A DNA stretch of 42,675 bases. Source: Gemmatimonadota bacterium. Lineage in GTDB: Bacteria; Gemmatimonadota; Gemmatimonadetes; Longimicrobiales; Gaopeijiaceae. A model generated the notes under the pieces. That model did no database searches and was not told the origin of the DNA. It worked only from the letters and a program-made list of their open reading frames with translations. Of the stretch, positions 17,811 through 23,742 are shown one piece after another. Numbering within the stretch: the stretch's first letter is position 1; each line of letters begins with the position of its first letter. The DNA lies in contig JAJDVT010000076.1 of assembly GCA_022826005.1 (NCBI GenBank), positions 1-42,675 on the forward strand. The letters are read 5' to 3'. Position numbers and translations under genes: made by a program.

Positions 17811-18170
17811 GTGGAAGACGGTCAGCGAAGCACTGAAGATACGGGAAAGGAGCGTGCCGAGCGGATGCTCGCCGATGTCCCCCTCGACGAGGAAGTCGTG
17901 CTGGTCCGGATGGACGTGGACGGGGAGGACATCGAAGGACTCCTGGAACGGGGCATCGTGCCGGGTTGCAAGCTTTGTCCCGTGCGGCACGCTCCCGCCG
18001 GGGGGCCGACCGTGTATCGAGTGGACGGCGATTTGATCGCGATGCGAAAGGACATCGCTTCGTGTCTCTGTGTGCAGAGCGCCCTGGCAGCCCGCCGCTC
18101 GCCGTCCGAAGGCCGCAGGGGAGTCGGCCAGGAGGCGCTGGAGGCCGCAGGGGTCGTGGACACCACTTGA
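17811..18170 (+). CDS. feoA: FeoA-domain protein
   Basis: 119 residues. The SH3-like FeoA fold covers about residues 19-92: MLADVPLDEEVVLVRMDV, LLERGIVPGCKLCPVRHAP, PTVYRVDGDLIAMRKDIAS. FeoA is a small cytoplasmic partner of the FeoB ferrous iron transporter. The GTG at 17811 has GGAAGGG seven bases upstream; an ATG at 17865 with AGGAG 12 bases upstream would give the classic size of about 75 residues plus tail. The C-terminal 30 residues (RRSPSEGRRGVGQEALEAA) are extra. Its stop overlaps the TTG start of feoB as TTGA. Probably iron-repressed through the palindrome at 17740. The cysteines in SCLCVQS and GCKLC are unusual for FeoA. Confidence 0.85.
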   Translation: MEDGQRSTEDTGKERAERMLADVPLDEEVVLVRMDVDGEDIEGLLERGIVPGCKLCPVRHAPAGGPTVYRVDGDLIAMRKDIASCLCVQSALAARRSPSEGRRGVGQEALEAAGVVDTT

Positions 18171-20053
18171 CCGGCGCCGACCCTCTGGTGGCGCTGGTGG
18201 GACCCCCGAATGCCGGCAAGTCCACCCTCTTCAATACCCTCACGGGGCTGAAGCAGCGGGTCGCCAACTATCCGGGCGTGACCGTCGAGCGGAGGTCCGG
18301 CGTGGTGGACGAGCCGGTCGGATCGGTTGAGGTGATCGACCTGCCCGGTGTGCACGGCCTGTCGCCGCGCAGCCTGGACCAGATGGTCACCCGCGACGTT
18401 CTGATGGGCAATCTGGAAGGCGGCAGACAGCCGGACGCGGTAGTGCTTTTGCTGGACGCTACCCGCCTTCGGTCGCACCTGATGCTGGCGGACCCGGTGC
18501 TCGGCCTTGGCCTCCCCGCCCTTGTCGTGCTGACGATGGGCGATGAGCTCGGCAGACGCGACGGCGCGGTGGACCCCGCCGCGCTCGCGGCCGAACTGGG
18601 AGTGGAGGTGACGCTGGTCAACGCACGCGACCCATCGACCCTGGGGACCGTGCGCCGCTTCCTGCGCGCTCTCCACACCGGAGGCGAGGAGTTGCGTGCC
18701 TGTCCCGCCATCGCGGTGGCGGACGCCGCTGCCGCCGAGCACCACCCGGGCCGCCCCCTCCCGGTGGTCGACCTCTTCGCCGAGCGGCGCAAGCGGGCGC
18801 GTGCGCTGGGCCGTTCGGCCGACTTCCGCGATCCCCGCCCGTCGCGCTTCACGCAGCGGCTCGACGCGGTGGTGCTGCACCGGTTTTGGGGACCGCTGCT
18901 CTTCCTGGTCGTGGTTGCGCTCGTCTTCGAAGCCATCTTCTCGTGGGCGATCCCGCTGATGGACGCCACCGAAACGGCGATCGGGGCGTCGGGGGCGTTC
19001 GTCGCCGCGCTACTCCCCGACAGCTGGTTCCGTGCGCTGCTCATCGACGGGGTGTGGGCGGGGGTGGGATCGGTAATCGTCTTCCTTCCCCAGATCCTCA
19101 TCCTGTTCTTCTTCATCGCCATCCTGGAGGATTCGGGCTACATGGCGCGCGCGGCGGTGATCGCCGACCGGGTGATGCACCGGGTGGGGCTGCAGGGGCG
19201 GTCGTTCCTGCCGCTCCTGTCGGCCTACGCCTGTGCGGTGCCCGCGGTGATGGCGGCCCGAACGGTGGAGGACGAGCGCGACCGCATCGCCACGATATTC
19301 GTTGCCCCGTTCATGACCTGCTCGGCGCGGCTTCCCGTCTACGCGCTCCTCATCGCCGCCTTCATCCCCGCAGGCGCCCTGATCGGTCCGCTGGGCCGGC
19401 GCGCGGCAGTAATGATCGGCCTCTACGCGCTCGGACTCGTGGCGGCCCTGGTCACGGCGGCCATCCTCAAGGGCACGCTGCTGGGCGGCCGCTCCGCGCC
19501 CTTCGTGATGGAATTGCCCCCGTACCGCCTGCCCAGCTGGCGCTCGATCACAAACCGCCTCCTCGACCGCACGAAGATCTTCCTGCGCCGCGCCGGCAAG
19601 ATCATCCTGACGGTGACCGTGGTGCTCTGGGTGCTCACCCAGGTCCCGAGGGCCGCGGGAGGCGGAGCACCCGAGATCGGAACCAGCGCGTTGGGGCAGA
19701 TCGGGCAGGTGATCGAGCCCGTGATCGAGCCGCTGGGCTTCGACTGGCGCATCGGCATCGGGCTGGTGACATCACTGGCCGCCAGGGAGGTGATCGTCGG
19801 CACCCTGGGCACCATCTACGGTGTCGAGAACGAGGGCGGGGCCGACTTCGAGCTGCAGGCGGCGTTGCAGCAGGACCTCGACCTGGGCTCCGCGGTGGCC
19901 CTGCTGATCTTTTTCGTCTTCGCGCTTCAGTGCATGTCCACGGTGGCGGTAATGCGCCGCGAGACTGGAGGCTGGCGATGGCCGGCGATACAGTTTTCGT
20001 ACATGCTTGCCCTGGCCTACGCGGGGGCCTGGCTCGGCAACGCGCTGCTGTGA
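18167..20053 (+). CDS. feoB: Ferrous iron transporter FeoB
   Basis: 628 residues: an N-terminal G domain, then a membrane domain importing Fe(II). G1 is GPPNAGKST (12-20), G2 Thr in PGVTVE, G3 DLPG (58-61). At G4 the usual N-x-x-D reads TMGD (123-126), so the guanine-reading Asn is missing. The membrane part carries two Gate-type regions, including LSAYACAVPAVMAARTVE and VAPFMTCSARLPVYALL; the family motif GCNVPA reads ACAVPA, keeping the Cys. The TTG at 18167 overlaps the feoA stop by four bases, so translation is coupled. Upstream frame to 17966 is inside feoA and is not protein-like. No FeoC is visible. Length is shorter than E. coli FeoB (about 770), as in many lineages. Confidence 0.95.
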   Translation: MTGADPLVALVGPPNAGKSTLFNTLTGLKQRVANYPGVTVERRSGVVDEPVGSVEVIDLPGVHGLSPRSLDQMVTRDVLMGNLEGGRQPDAVVLLLDATRLRSHLMLADPVLGLGLPALVVLTMGDELGRRDGAVDPAALAAELGVEVTLVNARDPSTLGTVRRFLRALHTGGEELRACPAIAVADAAAAEHHPGRPLPVVDLFAERRKRARALGRSADFRDPRPSRFTQRLDAVVLHRFWGPLLFLVVVALVFEAIFSWAIPLMDATETAIGASGAFVAALLPDSWFRALLIDGVWAGVGSVIVFLPQILILFFFIAILEDSGYMARAAVIADRVMHRVGLQGRSFLPLLSAYACAVPAVMAARTVEDERDRIATIFVAPFMTCSARLPVYALLIAAFIPAGALIGPLGRRAAVMIGLYALGLVAALVTAAILKGTLLGGRSAPFVMELPPYRLPSWRSITNRLLDRTKIFLRRAGKIILTVTVVLWVLTQVPRAAGGGAPEIGTSALGQIGQVIEPVIEPLGFDWRIGIGLVTSLAAREVIVGTLGTIYGVENEGGADFELQAALQQDLDLGSAVALLIFFVFALQCMSTVAVMRRETGGWRWPAIQFSYMLALAYAGAWLGNALL

Positions 20054-20113: not shown

Positions 20114-20335
20114 CTAGCCCTTGAAGCGCCGCACCCTGCCCGTAACCTCGACGTCCACCGGGAATCCCCCCGCCCGGCGAAGCAGCCGGGACCGCAGATC
20201 CGGGTCGTCTCTCTCAAGGTAGACCTTGATGCAGGGCTTTCCGCCGCTCGTGCCGATGGCGGTGCCAGAGACACCCTTCATCCCGATGACCCTGCGGGTG
20301 ACGCGGTCGAGCGCCTCTTCGATCGAGCCGCTCAC
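20114..20335 (-). CDS. 73-aa solo propeptide-like domain, duplicate of the N-terminal domain of the adjacent protease
   Basis: A small protein without signal peptide. Residues about 17-70 (MKGVSGTAIGTSGGKPC, IKVYLERDD, VDVEVTGRVRRF) line up with residues about 82-130 of the protease encoded just upstream (MPGVAGTAVGFGPAGLP, VVKVYLDHED, LVTEVTGPFEA). The pattern helix-strand-strand-helix-strand resembles a propeptide or I9-like fold. GTG start three bases after the protease stop, so the two are co-translated. Possible roles are protease inhibitor, folding helper or regulatory fragment; none can be proven here. No signal peptide is visible, whereas the protease has an N-terminal membrane segment, so the two may meet in the cytoplasm only before export. 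Confidence 0.8.
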   Translation of the reverse strand: MSGSIEEALDRVTRRVIGMKGVSGTAIGTSGGKPCIKVYLERDDPDLRSRLLRRAGGFPVDVEVTGRVRRFKG

Positions 20336-20338
20336 GGG

Positions 20339-21469
20339 TCAGTTGCCGTCGATCCTGAGGTCGAAGTGGTCCAGCACCAGGCCGATTGGATTGGCGATGG
20401 TGCTGTTGTTGCTGCCGGCGAAGAGGAGGCCGACCGGGCGCCGGCTGTCCGGACCGCTCCCCCCTGCCACGATGAGGGAACCGGAGTCTCCGGGAGCCGA
20501 GAACCCGTTGCCCGTGATGACGATCTGGCCGGAGAAGCGCGCCGTGTTGTCGCGGAAACCGACGTTGAGGGTCGCGTTCAGGCCGCTGATCTTGCCGTGC
20601 GTGTGACCGGTGGTGCGTCCGTACTTCTGTACCTCCATCCCCAGCTTCGCGGCCAGAACTTCGCTCCGCGGGGTGCCGTAGCCGTTGGAGGGGGTGCTGT
20701 TGCCGAGATTGTCGGTCGTGGTGGCGGCGATGGCGGCGTCGATCTGGTTGGCGGGACAGACGGGGAAGGGGTCGCAGAAGCGGATGGGCATGAAGTCGTG
20801 CAGCGTGCCGATCGCATCTGTCGGGTTGACGCCACCGTCCACCGAGCCGGGCTGCAGGATGTGGTCGCCCTTGTTGGCCTGGTTGCGGTTCGCGTAGACG
20901 TGGTTGTTGCTGAGCGCGAAAACGTCGGAGCCGGAGACGACGCGGGCGCCGATGGTGCCGGCAGTGACGTCCACCTGGCCGGTGGAAACGCCGATCGGCA
21001 CGGGGCGCGCGAAGGACCGCCGCGGGTCGGTGTCGTCGGCCGCTGCCTCTTCCGGACTCGCGGGCGAGGGATCCCGCGCCTCGAAGGGACCCGTGACCTC
21101 GGTAACGAGGCGGTGACCATCCAGGCTGGCTGGTATCCCGGCCACGTCCTCATGGTCCAGGTACACCTTCACCACGGGCAGACCGGCCGGGCCGAAGCCC
21201 ACGGCGGTGCCGGCGACGCCGGGCATGGCCAGCAGTTCCGGGTTGTGACGCTCCTGCACCGCCATGGCGGCGGCGAGGTCCTGGTAGTCCAGCAGGGCCG
21301 GCAGTCCCGCATTGGCGGGTGCCCCAACCGGCCAGATCAGGTAGGCGTCCAGCGCCACCGCGGCCGCCAGCGTCGCGAGGCGCAAGGCCCCGCGCCTGCA
21401 CATGATCGTGTGCCGTTCGGTTCGCGCCTCCTGCGGCTCCTTGCCGCCTCGTGTCCTGGACAGCTTCAT
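20339..21469 (-). CDS. Trypsin-like serine protease with N-terminal anchor and propeptide-like domain
   Basis: 376 residues. A short basic stretch and a hydrophobic segment (about 28-48, ALRLATLAAAVALDAYLIW) make a signal peptide or anchor. Residues about 78-130 form a propeptide-like domain (GVAGTAVG, VVKVYLDHED, EVTGPFE). The chymotrypsin-fold body follows: His190 in ALSNNHVYA, Asp244 in QIDAAIA, Ser329 in APGDSGSLIV, a complete triad. ATG at 21469 chosen because GAGGAG lies nine bases upstream; a later ATG at 21403 is possible. The sequence resembles the NAL1-like bacterial trypsin family. Likely acts in the periplasm or at the surface. Its close partner is the 73-residue protein next in the operon. 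Confidence 0.88.
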   Translation of the reverse strand: MKLSRTRGGKEPQEARTERHTIMCRRGALRLATLAAAVALDAYLIWPVGAPANAGLPALLDYQDLAAAMAVQERHNPELLAMPGVAGTAVGFGPAGLPVVKVYLDHEDVAGIPASLDGHRLVTEVTGPFEARDPSPASPEEAAADDTDPRRSFARPVPIGVSTGQVDVTAGTIGARVVSGSDVFALSNNHVYANRNQANKGDHILQPGSVDGGVNPTDAIGTLHDFMPIRFCDPFPVCPANQIDAAIAATTTDNLGNSTPSNGYGTPRSEVLAAKLGMEVQKYGRTTGHTHGKISGLNATLNVGFRDNTARFSGQIVITGNGFSAPGDSGSLIVAGGSGPDSRRPVGLLFAGSNNSTIANPIGLVLDHFDLRIDGN

Positions 21470-21552: not shown

Positions 21553-22728
21553 TTACCGACGACGCGGCCACAAGGTTTCGTTGTCTGGCAAGAATTCGCC
21601 CTGATGCTCCCCGGCGGCCGGAGGAACACGCCGCAGCGTCGCCCGGCGACCGTCCCACCGCACCGGCATCGGCACGTCGATGTACCCTGCGACGTCCGGG
21701 TGGTCGCGCTTCCGGACCATCCCGGTGGCGGCGGTCTGGGGATCCTCCAGCGCCGAAGCCACCGTGTGAATCGGGGCCGCGGGCACCCGGTGGCTGCTGA
21801 GAAGGTCCAGCAGGGCATCGACTGCGTGCTCGCGGGTCCGCTCTGCGATGCGTTCGGCCAGCCGTGTACTGTTCGCAACCCGCGACGCATTGTCCGCGTA
21901 GTCGGGAAGGCCGGAGAGGTTGAGCCCCAGAGCAGCGCACAGCCGGCGGAAGATGTCGTCGTTACCGGCGGCGATCATCACCGCCCCGTCGGTGCAGGGG
22001 AACGCCTGGTACGGCGCGATCATGCCGATCGAGGTGCCCATCGGCTGCGGCAGGACCCCGGTGGCGAGGTAGCCGGTCAGATGATAGGACATCCACGCAA
22101 GCGAGGTATCGAGGAGCGAGGCGGTCACATGACAGCCCTGTCCGGTGCGCTGCCGCTCCATGAGGGCGGCCATCACGGCGATCGCCGTCCACATCCCCGT
22201 GCCGAGGTCCACGATGGACGTTCCCACCCGGGCTGGATTGCCGCCTGGATCGCCGGTCACCGACATCAGCCCGGAGCGCGCCTGCATGAGCGGATCGTAT
22301 CCGGGGTCGTCCCGCAACGGACCCTCGTTTCCGTAGGCCGTTACCGACACGTAGATCACCGCTGGATTGCCCGCCTTCACACACTCGTATCCGATACCGA
22401 GCCGGTCGGCAGCACCGTGGCGCAACGCCTGGACCACAACATCGGCCTCCGCCGCCAGCCGCCGGCCCAGGTCGCGGTCGGCCTGCTCCTTCAGGTCCAG
22501 GATTACGCTGCGCTTGTTCCGATTCACGACCTGGAAGAGCGTACTTTGCCCGCCCACGAACGGCGGTCCCCACTGCCTCGCAGGGTCGCCTCCGGGCGGC
22601 TCGACCTTCACCACATCCGCCCCGAGATCCCCCAGGATCTGGGTGGCGAATGGACCCGCGAGGTTCTGGGAGAAGTCCAGCACGCGGATCCCGGCGAGCG
22701 GTGCGGGGGGCAACTGCGGAGCGGACAT
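21553..22728 (-). CDS. CaiB/BaiF family CoA-transferase (class III)
   Basis: 391 residues, full length for class III CoA-transferases, which move CoA between carboxylic acids through an aspartyl intermediate. Seen: LAGIRVLDFSQNLAGPFATQ, LGADVVKVEPPGGD, NRNKRSVILDLK, the AYGNEGP segment, and GTSIVDLGTGMWTAIAVMAAL, where the Asp fits the catalytic position. The C-terminal half has TREHAVDALL and VPAAPIHTVA. The frame is open to 23100, but homology starts at the ATG at 22728 (MSAPQLPPAPL). Which acids it uses cannot be read; no acyl-CoA dehydrogenase or ligase is near. Divergent from the HExxH gene, with 108 bases between starts. Confidence 0.92.
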   Translation of the reverse strand: MSAPQLPPAPLAGIRVLDFSQNLAGPFATQILGDLGADVVKVEPPGGDPARQWGPPFVGGQSTLFQVVNRNKRSVILDLKEQADRDLGRRLAAEADVVVQALRHGAADRLGIGYECVKAGNPAVIYVSVTAYGNEGPLRDDPGYDPLMQARSGLMSVTGDPGGNPARVGTSIVDLGTGMWTAIAVMAALMERQRTGQGCHVTASLLDTSLAWMSYHLTGYLATGVLPQPMGTSIGMIAPYQAFPCTDGAVMIAAGNDDIFRRLCAALGLNLSGLPDYADNASRVANSTRLAERIAERTREHAVDALLDLLSSHRVPAAPIHTVASALEDPQTAATGMVRKRDHPDVAGYIDVPMPVRWDGRRATLRRVPPAAGEHQGEFLPDNETLWPRRR

Positions 22729-22836
22729 GACGGATCGGTTTCCGGTGAAGGTGTGGTAGCCCCCCCGGGGCGGCATCCCCGAGCCGGCCAGGGGTGGTCC
22801 AGGCGCGAATTCGGCCAAGGACTGATAGGATAAGAT

Positions 22837-23742
22837 ATGGAGACGATACGCATTCCCAATAGCGCGACCTACTCTCCCGTCGCGCTCACCGACCTGATCT
22901 TTGCGGCGCCGCTGGCATCGCGGCTGCTGATCGGCGCGACGCTTCCGGGACGCATCCTGCAACTGGCTGCCGCGGGCGCCTACGTCGGTAGCGTGGTGGG
23001 CGACTGGGCCAGCCGGCGAGGCGTCCGCAAGATCGACTTCCTCGAGACTTTTTCTTCCGATGTCCAGCACATGGAGGAGACGCCCGAGTCGCAGCGCCAT
23101 GAAGATGTCCGGCGGTTCTCGGAAGAACTCATGGACATCTACACACCGGTGACCCGCACGCGGGACATCCTCGCCGCCGACGTGAACGAACGCCTCACCT
23201 CGTACATGGCGGGGATCACCGGCCAGCGGGTGGAGACCAGCAGCGCGATCCGCAACGTCACCCTCGCGCGCTTCATGATGCCCTTTGCGTCGGGGAGCTG
23301 TGACATCCTTTCAGGGGATATCGCGGTCTTCCGCCCCACCGGCGTCTTCGAGCCGCACATCCTGGCCCATGAATTCTGTCATCGGAAGGGATACCTCAAG
23401 GAGCTGGAGGCCCAGGCGCTGGCCTACCTGTCGCTGTCCGGCTCCCGGGACCCGCAGCTTCGCCAGTCCGCCCTCGCCGAGCGCGTCTACCGCAACCTGC
23501 GCGTCCTGGACGGCGACGACCCCGAGCGATACGGGGAATTGCTGGACGCAACGCCGCTGGCGGACGAGGTGCTGGAGGACTTTCGCCGCCTCCGGCCGCC
23601 GGATCAGCGGACGGGCGCCGTGACGAACGCCATGAAGGAGCTGTACGACACCCGGATGAAGATGACCGGGCAGAACGGACTCTCCGACTACGACCGGGGC
23701 TTCACCAACTTCCTGTACACCTACGAGAAGTCGGCCTGCTGA
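22837..23742 (+). CDS. Putative membrane-associated metalloprotease (HExxH, DUF3810-like)
   Basis: 301 residues. A hydrophobic stretch at about 17-55 (ALTDLIFAAPLASRLLIG, LAAAGAYVGSVVG) suggests one or two membrane segments. The motif LAHEFCHRKGY gives His178, Glu179 and His182, and the following KELEAQALAYL gives a likely third ligand, Glu191. HExxH followed by an EA motif is the pattern of DUF3810-type predicted zinc proteases. The rest is helical. ATG start with AGGATAAG close upstream. It ends YEKSAC. Biological substrate unknown. No co-directional partner is within 100 bases. Confidence 0.7.
   Translation: METIRIPNSATYSPVALTDLIFAAPLASRLLIGATLPGRILQLAAAGAYVGSVVGDWASRRGVRKIDFLETFSSDVQHMEETPESQRHEDVRRFSEELMDIYTPVTRTRDILAADVNERLTSYMAGITGQRVETSSAIRNVTLARFMMPFASGSCDILSGDIAVFRPTGVFEPHILAHEFCHRKGYLKELEAQALAYLSLSGSRDPQLRQSALAERVYRNLRVLDGDDPERYGELLDATPLADEVLEDFRRLRPPDQRTGAVTNAMKELYDTRMKMTGQNGLSDYDRGFTNFLYTYEKSAC

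What the first reader, a model, noticed from the sequence alone, without database searches (positions are those of the whole stretch)
20114..21469. Trypsin-like protease with a separately encoded copy of its own N-terminal propeptide-like domain
The 73-residue protein (GVSGTAIG, IKVYLERDD, VDVEVTG) aligns along its length with the N-terminal domain of the protease three bases upstream (GVAGTAVG, VVKVYLDHED, VTEVTGPF). The protease has a full His-Asp-Ser triad and a membrane segment; the small protein has no signal. A solo copy of a propeptide next to its parent is the layout of a dedicated inhibitor or folding helper. I know of no described system of this kind in this phylum.
Basis: partly seen in the sequence, partly recalled or inferred. 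Interest (0 to 1): 0.72.

Follow-up and report, generated by a model that had tools for sequence, protein, structure and literature searches.

The report
Protease paired with its propeptide-fold partner
A bacterial trypsin-like protease related to the rice leaf-shape protein NAL1 is almost always encoded beside a small separate protein that is an ancient sister of the protease's own front domain and probably blocks or helps fold it; this two-gene arrangement recurs in at least three bacterial phyla and I found no published description of it.

Summary
The 73-aa gene (20114-20335, -) starts three bases after the stop of a NAL1-like serine protease (20339-21469, -) and matches its N-terminal domain (pairwise E 2e-6; profile E 2e-8). 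The pairing is strongly conserved: 99 of 112 near-full-length Gemmatimonadota proteases have the small gene beside them (downstream, or upstream in one family). Pairs also occur in 21 Krumholzibacteriota and 11 gammaproteobacterial loci. Three corrections. (1) It is not a fresh copy: small proteins and N-domains form nearly separate lineages, so it is an ancient paralogue. (2) "No signal" holds only in the window's lineage and some others; in most other Gemmatimonadota and Krumholzibacteriota pairs both partners are lipoproteins. (3) The N-domain is retained in solved NAL1, so it is not a classical discarded propeptide. The predicted fold matches NAL1's N-domain and, modestly, the C-terminal half of the alpha-lytic protease pro region, a known inhibitor and foldase of a protease whose catalytic domain resembles this one. 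Best reading: a dedicated trans-acting partner, most likely an inhibitor (confidence 0.5), less likely a folding helper or adaptor. Binding and inhibition are untested. New variant of a known kind (propeptide-like inhibitors beside their protease).

The parts
20114..20335 (-). solo domain gene, 73 aa, GTG start, alpha-beta-beta-alpha-beta fold, no signal sequence
20339..21469 (-). NAL1-like trypsin-like serine protease ORF, 376 aa; likely true start Met23 at 21403
21332..21385 (-). hydrophobic membrane anchor, about residues 29-46, with an Asp in the middle as in relatives
21080..21268 (-). N-terminal domain of the protease, residues 68-130, paralogous to the solo protein
20342..21007 (-). catalytic domain, residues 155-376, with His190, Asp244, Ser329
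20336..20341 (.). junction: TGA stop of the protease plus 3 bases before the GTG of the solo gene; in frame here, any frame in relatives

Best explanation
The small gene encodes a dedicated partner of the adjacent NAL1-like protease. It is an ancient paralogue of the protease's own N-terminal domain that folds independently. The most likely action is to bind the catalytic domain near its active site, as the C-terminal half of the alpha-lytic protease pro region does, and to hold it inactive. In lineages where both are lipoproteins this would happen at the cell envelope. [quoted passage not shown] Shown: the genes, homology, conserved pairing, purifying selection, predicted fold, signal types predicted from sequence. 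Inferred: physical binding, the site of binding, inhibition, and location in the cell.
For: Pairing: 99 of 112 near-full-length proteases in 395 Gemmatimonadota genomes (94, 5 more). In the window's genus 21 of 23 genomes have both and 2 have neither. The partner lies upstream in family f7 and head-to-head with the protease in Krumholzibacteriota locus L197, so this is not frozen synteny. Independent lineage: 3 label changes on a 162-row tree against 54 for shuffled labels. Fold: the solo model matches NAL1 (8pmm_C Z 6.0; 8pmg_B residues 88-172 Z 4.8) and the alpha-lytic pro region (4pro_C 87-166, Z 5.6, 70 aligned, 3.4 A; 3pro Z 5.3; 2pro Z 5.2); only 11 of 1000 chains reach Z 5. The catalytic domain is closest to streptogrisin and alpha-lytic protease (Z 20-21) after NAL1 (Z 27.4). 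The alpha-lytic prodomain is needed for folding and inhibits the enzyme (PMC2605481). Signals: in Gemmatimonadota lipoprotein proteases mostly pair with lipoprotein solos, and anchored proteases always with signal-less solos. Chain ends: 52 of about 104 solos end exactly 5 residues after the conserved Gly, consistent with, but not proof of, a product-like tail.
Against: No binding or inhibition data. The alpha-lytic pro-region match is at Z below 8, a range where common arrangements occur, the top hit is a designed binder, and Foldseek alone puts KH domains and MamM first. Sequence profiles show no link to the alpha-lytic prodomain family. The N-domain stays attached in solved NAL1. In the window's lineage protease and partner should meet only before or during export, and in gammaproteobacteria the protease has no signal while the partner often does.
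Confidence: 0.5

Rival explanations
1. Folding helper: the small protein catalyses folding or keeps the protease export-competent, then leaves, as the alpha-lytic pro region does, with inhibition only incidental.
For: Fold resemblance to a foldase pro region; genes nearly contiguous in the window lineage, which suits co-translational meeting; signal-less form suits action before export.
Against: The protease already carries its own N-domain; related proteases in Ignavibacteria and Bacteroidota have no solo gene, so the catalytic domain can fold without one.
Confidence: 0.2
2. Adaptor or structural subunit: the small protein replaces or joins the N-domain in an oligomer or recruits substrates.
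For: The N-domain is an integral part of solved NAL1; the same domain also occurs at the C-terminus of a beta-propeller lipoprotein and fused to PEBP, i.e. as a portable module.
Against: No direct evidence; signal types differ between partners in two lineages.
Confidence: 0.2
3. Protease toxin with immunity protein: the protease acts on other cells and the small protein protects the compartment at risk.
For: Opposite predicted compartments in the window lineage and in gammaproteobacteria; long envelope lipoproteins with CARDB repeats in other lineages.
Against: The catalytic domain is well conserved rather than polymorphic; usually one pair per genome; no defence-family match.
Confidence: 0.06
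4. One protein made by stop-codon readthrough or frameshifting, giving a protease with the domain at both ends.
For: In the window and several relatives the genes are in frame with a single TGA between them.
Against: The relation is in any of the three frames, gaps run from -4 to beyond +20 nt, other stops occur, own start codons are kept, and in other lineages the partner has its own signal peptide or lies upstream.
Confidence: 0.01

Closest known systems
Spi beside the C10 protease SpeB (Streptococcus), and staphostatins beside staphopains
   Same: Small protein co-encoded with an exported protease and thought to act in the cytoplasm on prematurely active enzyme (PMC3462683). Spi resembles its protease's propeptide (own knowledge).
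   Different: Cysteine proteases with unrelated folds. Here the enzyme is a trypsin-fold NAL1-like serine protease, and in most other lineages the partner is an exported lipoprotein.
Bacteroides Bfp/Bfi and Btp/Bti C10 protease and inhibitor pairs
   Same: Lipoprotein proteases with small inhibitor genes either upstream or downstream (PMC3462683).
   Different: Those inhibitors are staphostatin-like, not paralogues of a domain of the protease.
Alpha-lytic protease and its pro region
   Same: Catalytic domain of similar fold (Z 20) and a pro-region half of similar fold to the solo (Z 5.6); folding and inhibition by the prodomain.
   Different: Pro region is encoded in the same gene and cleaved off (own knowledge); no sequence-level match to the solo.
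NARROW LEAF 1 (NAL1) of rice
   Same: N-domain plus trypsin-like domain arrangement, Z 27.4 over 290 residues.
   Different: Solved NAL1 is one chain with its own N-domain; no separate partner gene was found in the literature searched.
I9 and I29 solo propeptide inhibitors (yeast PBI2, CTLA-2)
   Same: Stand-alone protein homologous to a protease propeptide (own knowledge).
   Different: Other protease classes; not tied to one neighbouring gene (own knowledge).

Membership tests
NAL1-like serine protease | Nal1_C sequence profile | tested here: met
   PF25819, 29.7 bits against cut-off 26.1; NAL1 chains by phmmer E 5e-6
NAL1-like serine protease | N-domain plus trypsin-like domain in NAL1 arrangement | tested here: met
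   Model residues 10-323 align to NAL1 92-446, Z 27.4, 3.3 A, 290 residues
NAL1-like serine protease | His-Asp-Ser catalytic residues | tested here: met
   His190 and Ser329 invariant, Asp244 nearly invariant in 22 relatives
Propeptide-like inhibitor beside its protease (kind, not sequence family) | Homologous to the N-terminal domain of the neighbouring protease | tested here: met
Propeptide-like inhibitor beside its protease (kind, not sequence family) | Conserved genetic linkage to the protease | tested here: met
   99 of 112 proteases; other phyla
Propeptide-like inhibitor beside its protease (kind, not sequence family) | Parent domain is removed on maturation | tested here: inconclusive
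   Retained in solved NAL1 chains; unknown for the bacterial enzyme
Propeptide-like inhibitor beside its protease (kind, not sequence family) | Inhibits the protease | not testable with these tools
   needs biochemistry
Alpha-lytic protease prodomain (PF02983) | Sequence profile match | tested here: not met
   No match in Pfam scans of the solo or of 54 relatives
Alpha-lytic protease prodomain (PF02983) | Same fold | tested here: inconclusive
   4pro_C Z 5.6, 70 aligned, 3.4 A; under the Z 8 caution level
Staphostatin or Spi | Sequence or fold membership | not tested
   Compared by arrangement only; their targets are cysteine proteases

The most novel reading that the evidence does not exclude
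An ancient two-gene protease control system, built by separating a paralogue of the N-domain of NAL1-type proteases, is kept across several phyla as lipoprotein-lipoprotein, anchor-cytosol and cytosol-exported variants. By extension the N-domain of plant NAL1 would be a built-in regulator of the same origin.
Probability: 0.4. Interest if true: 0.75.

Novelty: new variant of a known kind. Interest (0 to 1): 0.6.

Why it matters
NAL1 affects leaf shape and flowering in cereals, and how it is regulated is of wide interest. A bacterial version with a separately encoded domain partner gives a simple two-protein test of what that domain does. The solo family matches no Pfam model above its cut-off, yet occurs beside its protease in Gemmatimonadota, Krumholzibacteriota and Gammaproteobacteria. 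The coordinated change of export signals (both lipoproteins, or anchored protease with signal-less partner) is an unusual natural experiment on how a protease and its controller change compartment.

Tried and rejected
Readthrough or frameshift fusion: rejected because all three frames, variable gaps and swapped order occur. Recent tandem duplication of the parent's domain: rejected by the tree. Spurious ORF: rejected by dN/dS about 0.22 and conserved starts. Known family for the solo: no NCBIfam match, and only a sub-threshold Pfam DUF6767 hit at E 0.011. Defence system: no PADLOC match. Sequence link to solved proteins: none significant for the solo profile. Complex geometry: a pseudo-complex was predicted by reading the stop between the genes as Trp in the window and in in-frame relatives (pLDDT 89, pTM 0.78), but coordinates and error maps are not available, so nothing is claimed about docking. 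An alignment mixing all proteases and solos appeared to place solos on the N-domain and was discarded. An alignment using four-letter codons was made but not submitted for prediction. Foldseek alone gave no hit below E 0.001 for the solo. Literature searches for a prior description found none; the library lacks most subscription papers.

Full report
Observation. The two genes lie on the minus strand exactly as described, with a TGA stop, three bases and a GTG start between them. The small protein matches the protease N-domain by BLASTP (42% over 36 residues, E 2e-6), and a profile of small proteins matches it along nearly the whole domain (E 1.9e-8). The protease matches Pfam Nal1_C above its cut-off and rice NARROW LEAF 1 in the PDB. 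His190, Asp244 and Ser329 are conserved. The small gene evolves under purifying selection (dN/dS about 0.22 for close relatives).

Conservation of the pair. Of 25 relatives found by the protease in public genomes, all seventeen Gemmatimonadota loci (L008-L023, L026) carry the small gene directly downstream. In 395 Gemmatimonadota genomes there are 112 near-full-length proteases. 82 have a listed solo downstream and 12 upstream on the same strand, and reading the loci adds five more: L106, L113, L116, L144 and L146. In the window's genus, 21 of 23 genomes have both and two have neither. The distance and frame vary (-4 to above 20 nt in the short-spaced forms, all three frames), so this is gene coupling, not readthrough. 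Pairs also occur in 21 Krumholzibacteriota loci, sometimes head-to-head, and 11 gammaproteobacterial loci. Seven genomes of outside relatives were searched whole: the Ignavibacteria and Bacteroidetes genomes and one Krumholzibacteriia genome gave only the domain inside protease-sized frames, and the gammaproteobacterial one gave a solo.

Origin. On a 162-row tree of the domain, stand-alone proteins and protease N-domains are nearly separate, needing 3 label changes against about 54 for shuffled labels. Only 72 columns are available, so deep branches are weak, but the window's two copies clearly belong to different lineages. The solo is therefore an ancient paralogue kept beside the protease.

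Export signals. In the window's lineage and in family f7 the protease has a hydrophobic anchor without a lipobox and the solo has no signal. In most other Gemmatimonadota families both carry lipoprotein signals, and several of those proteases carry extra C-terminal CARDB domains. Krumholzibacteriota mostly have two exported partners. In gammaproteobacteria the protease lacks a signal while the solo often has one. These calls come from simple sequence rules, not a trained predictor.

Structure. The solo is predicted as alpha-beta-beta-alpha-beta (pLDDT 86.8). Among aligned PDB chains its best natural matches are NAL1 and the alpha-lytic protease pro region ending at residue 166 (Z 5.2-6.0). These scores are modest, and a designed protein ranks first. 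The N-domain plus catalytic domain matches NAL1 at Z 27.4, and the catalytic domain matches streptogrisin and alpha-lytic protease at Z 20-21. The alpha-lytic prodomain is required for folding and inhibits its enzyme (PMC2605481). About half of the solos end exactly five residues after the conserved Gly, which would suit a tail that enters the active site but may only mark the domain end.

Mechanism. I favour a trans-acting inhibitor (0.5), with foldase (0.2) and adaptor (0.2) as rivals. For the cytosolic form, Spi and the staphostatins are the precedent: small proteins co-encoded with exported proteases and thought to act on prematurely active enzyme in the cytoplasm (PMC3462683). For the lipoprotein form, Bacteroides C10 proteases, themselves predicted lipoproteins with inhibitor genes upstream or downstream, are the precedent in layout (same paper).

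Verdict. Function is unproven.

Noticed in passing
L133 2339-4003, L134 2057-3739, L136 315-1850, L137 1748-3616: The same domain, with two Cys, sits at the C-terminus of a six-bladed beta-propeller (DUF5128/NHL) lipoprotein in several genomes of the window's genus, away from the protease.
   Followed up: partly
L141 1348-2367 and L144 1941-3770: The solo domain is in one open frame with a phosphatidylethanolamine-binding protein (PF01161); that family includes the yeast carboxypeptidase Y inhibitor (own knowledge). In L144 it lies beside the protease.
   Followed up: partly
L107 1851-5792, L111 1373-6067, L125 1344-5183: Proteases of related families carry long C-terminal extensions; CARDB repeats (7-9) were identified in L107 and L111, suggesting envelope or surface enzymes.
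   Followed up: partly
L146 1900-3251: Genome G166 has a second, divergent protease-solo pair without export signals; the whole-genome search flagged an in-frame TGA in its protease match.
   Followed up: no
window 21332-21385 (-): The anchor segment of the short proteases keeps an Asp in its hydrophobic core (LDxLFF, ADLLIF) across relatives; reason unknown.
   Followed up: no
L098 1004-2519 and 2687-4450: Two tandem proteases precede one solo in G101; the first appears broken by a frameshift.
   Followed up: no
window 17966-20053 (+) and 21553-23100 (-): Neighbours are a FeoB-like iron transporter (convergent) and a CaiB/BaiF-like CoA transferase; assigned by eye, with no evident link to the pair.
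   Followed up: no
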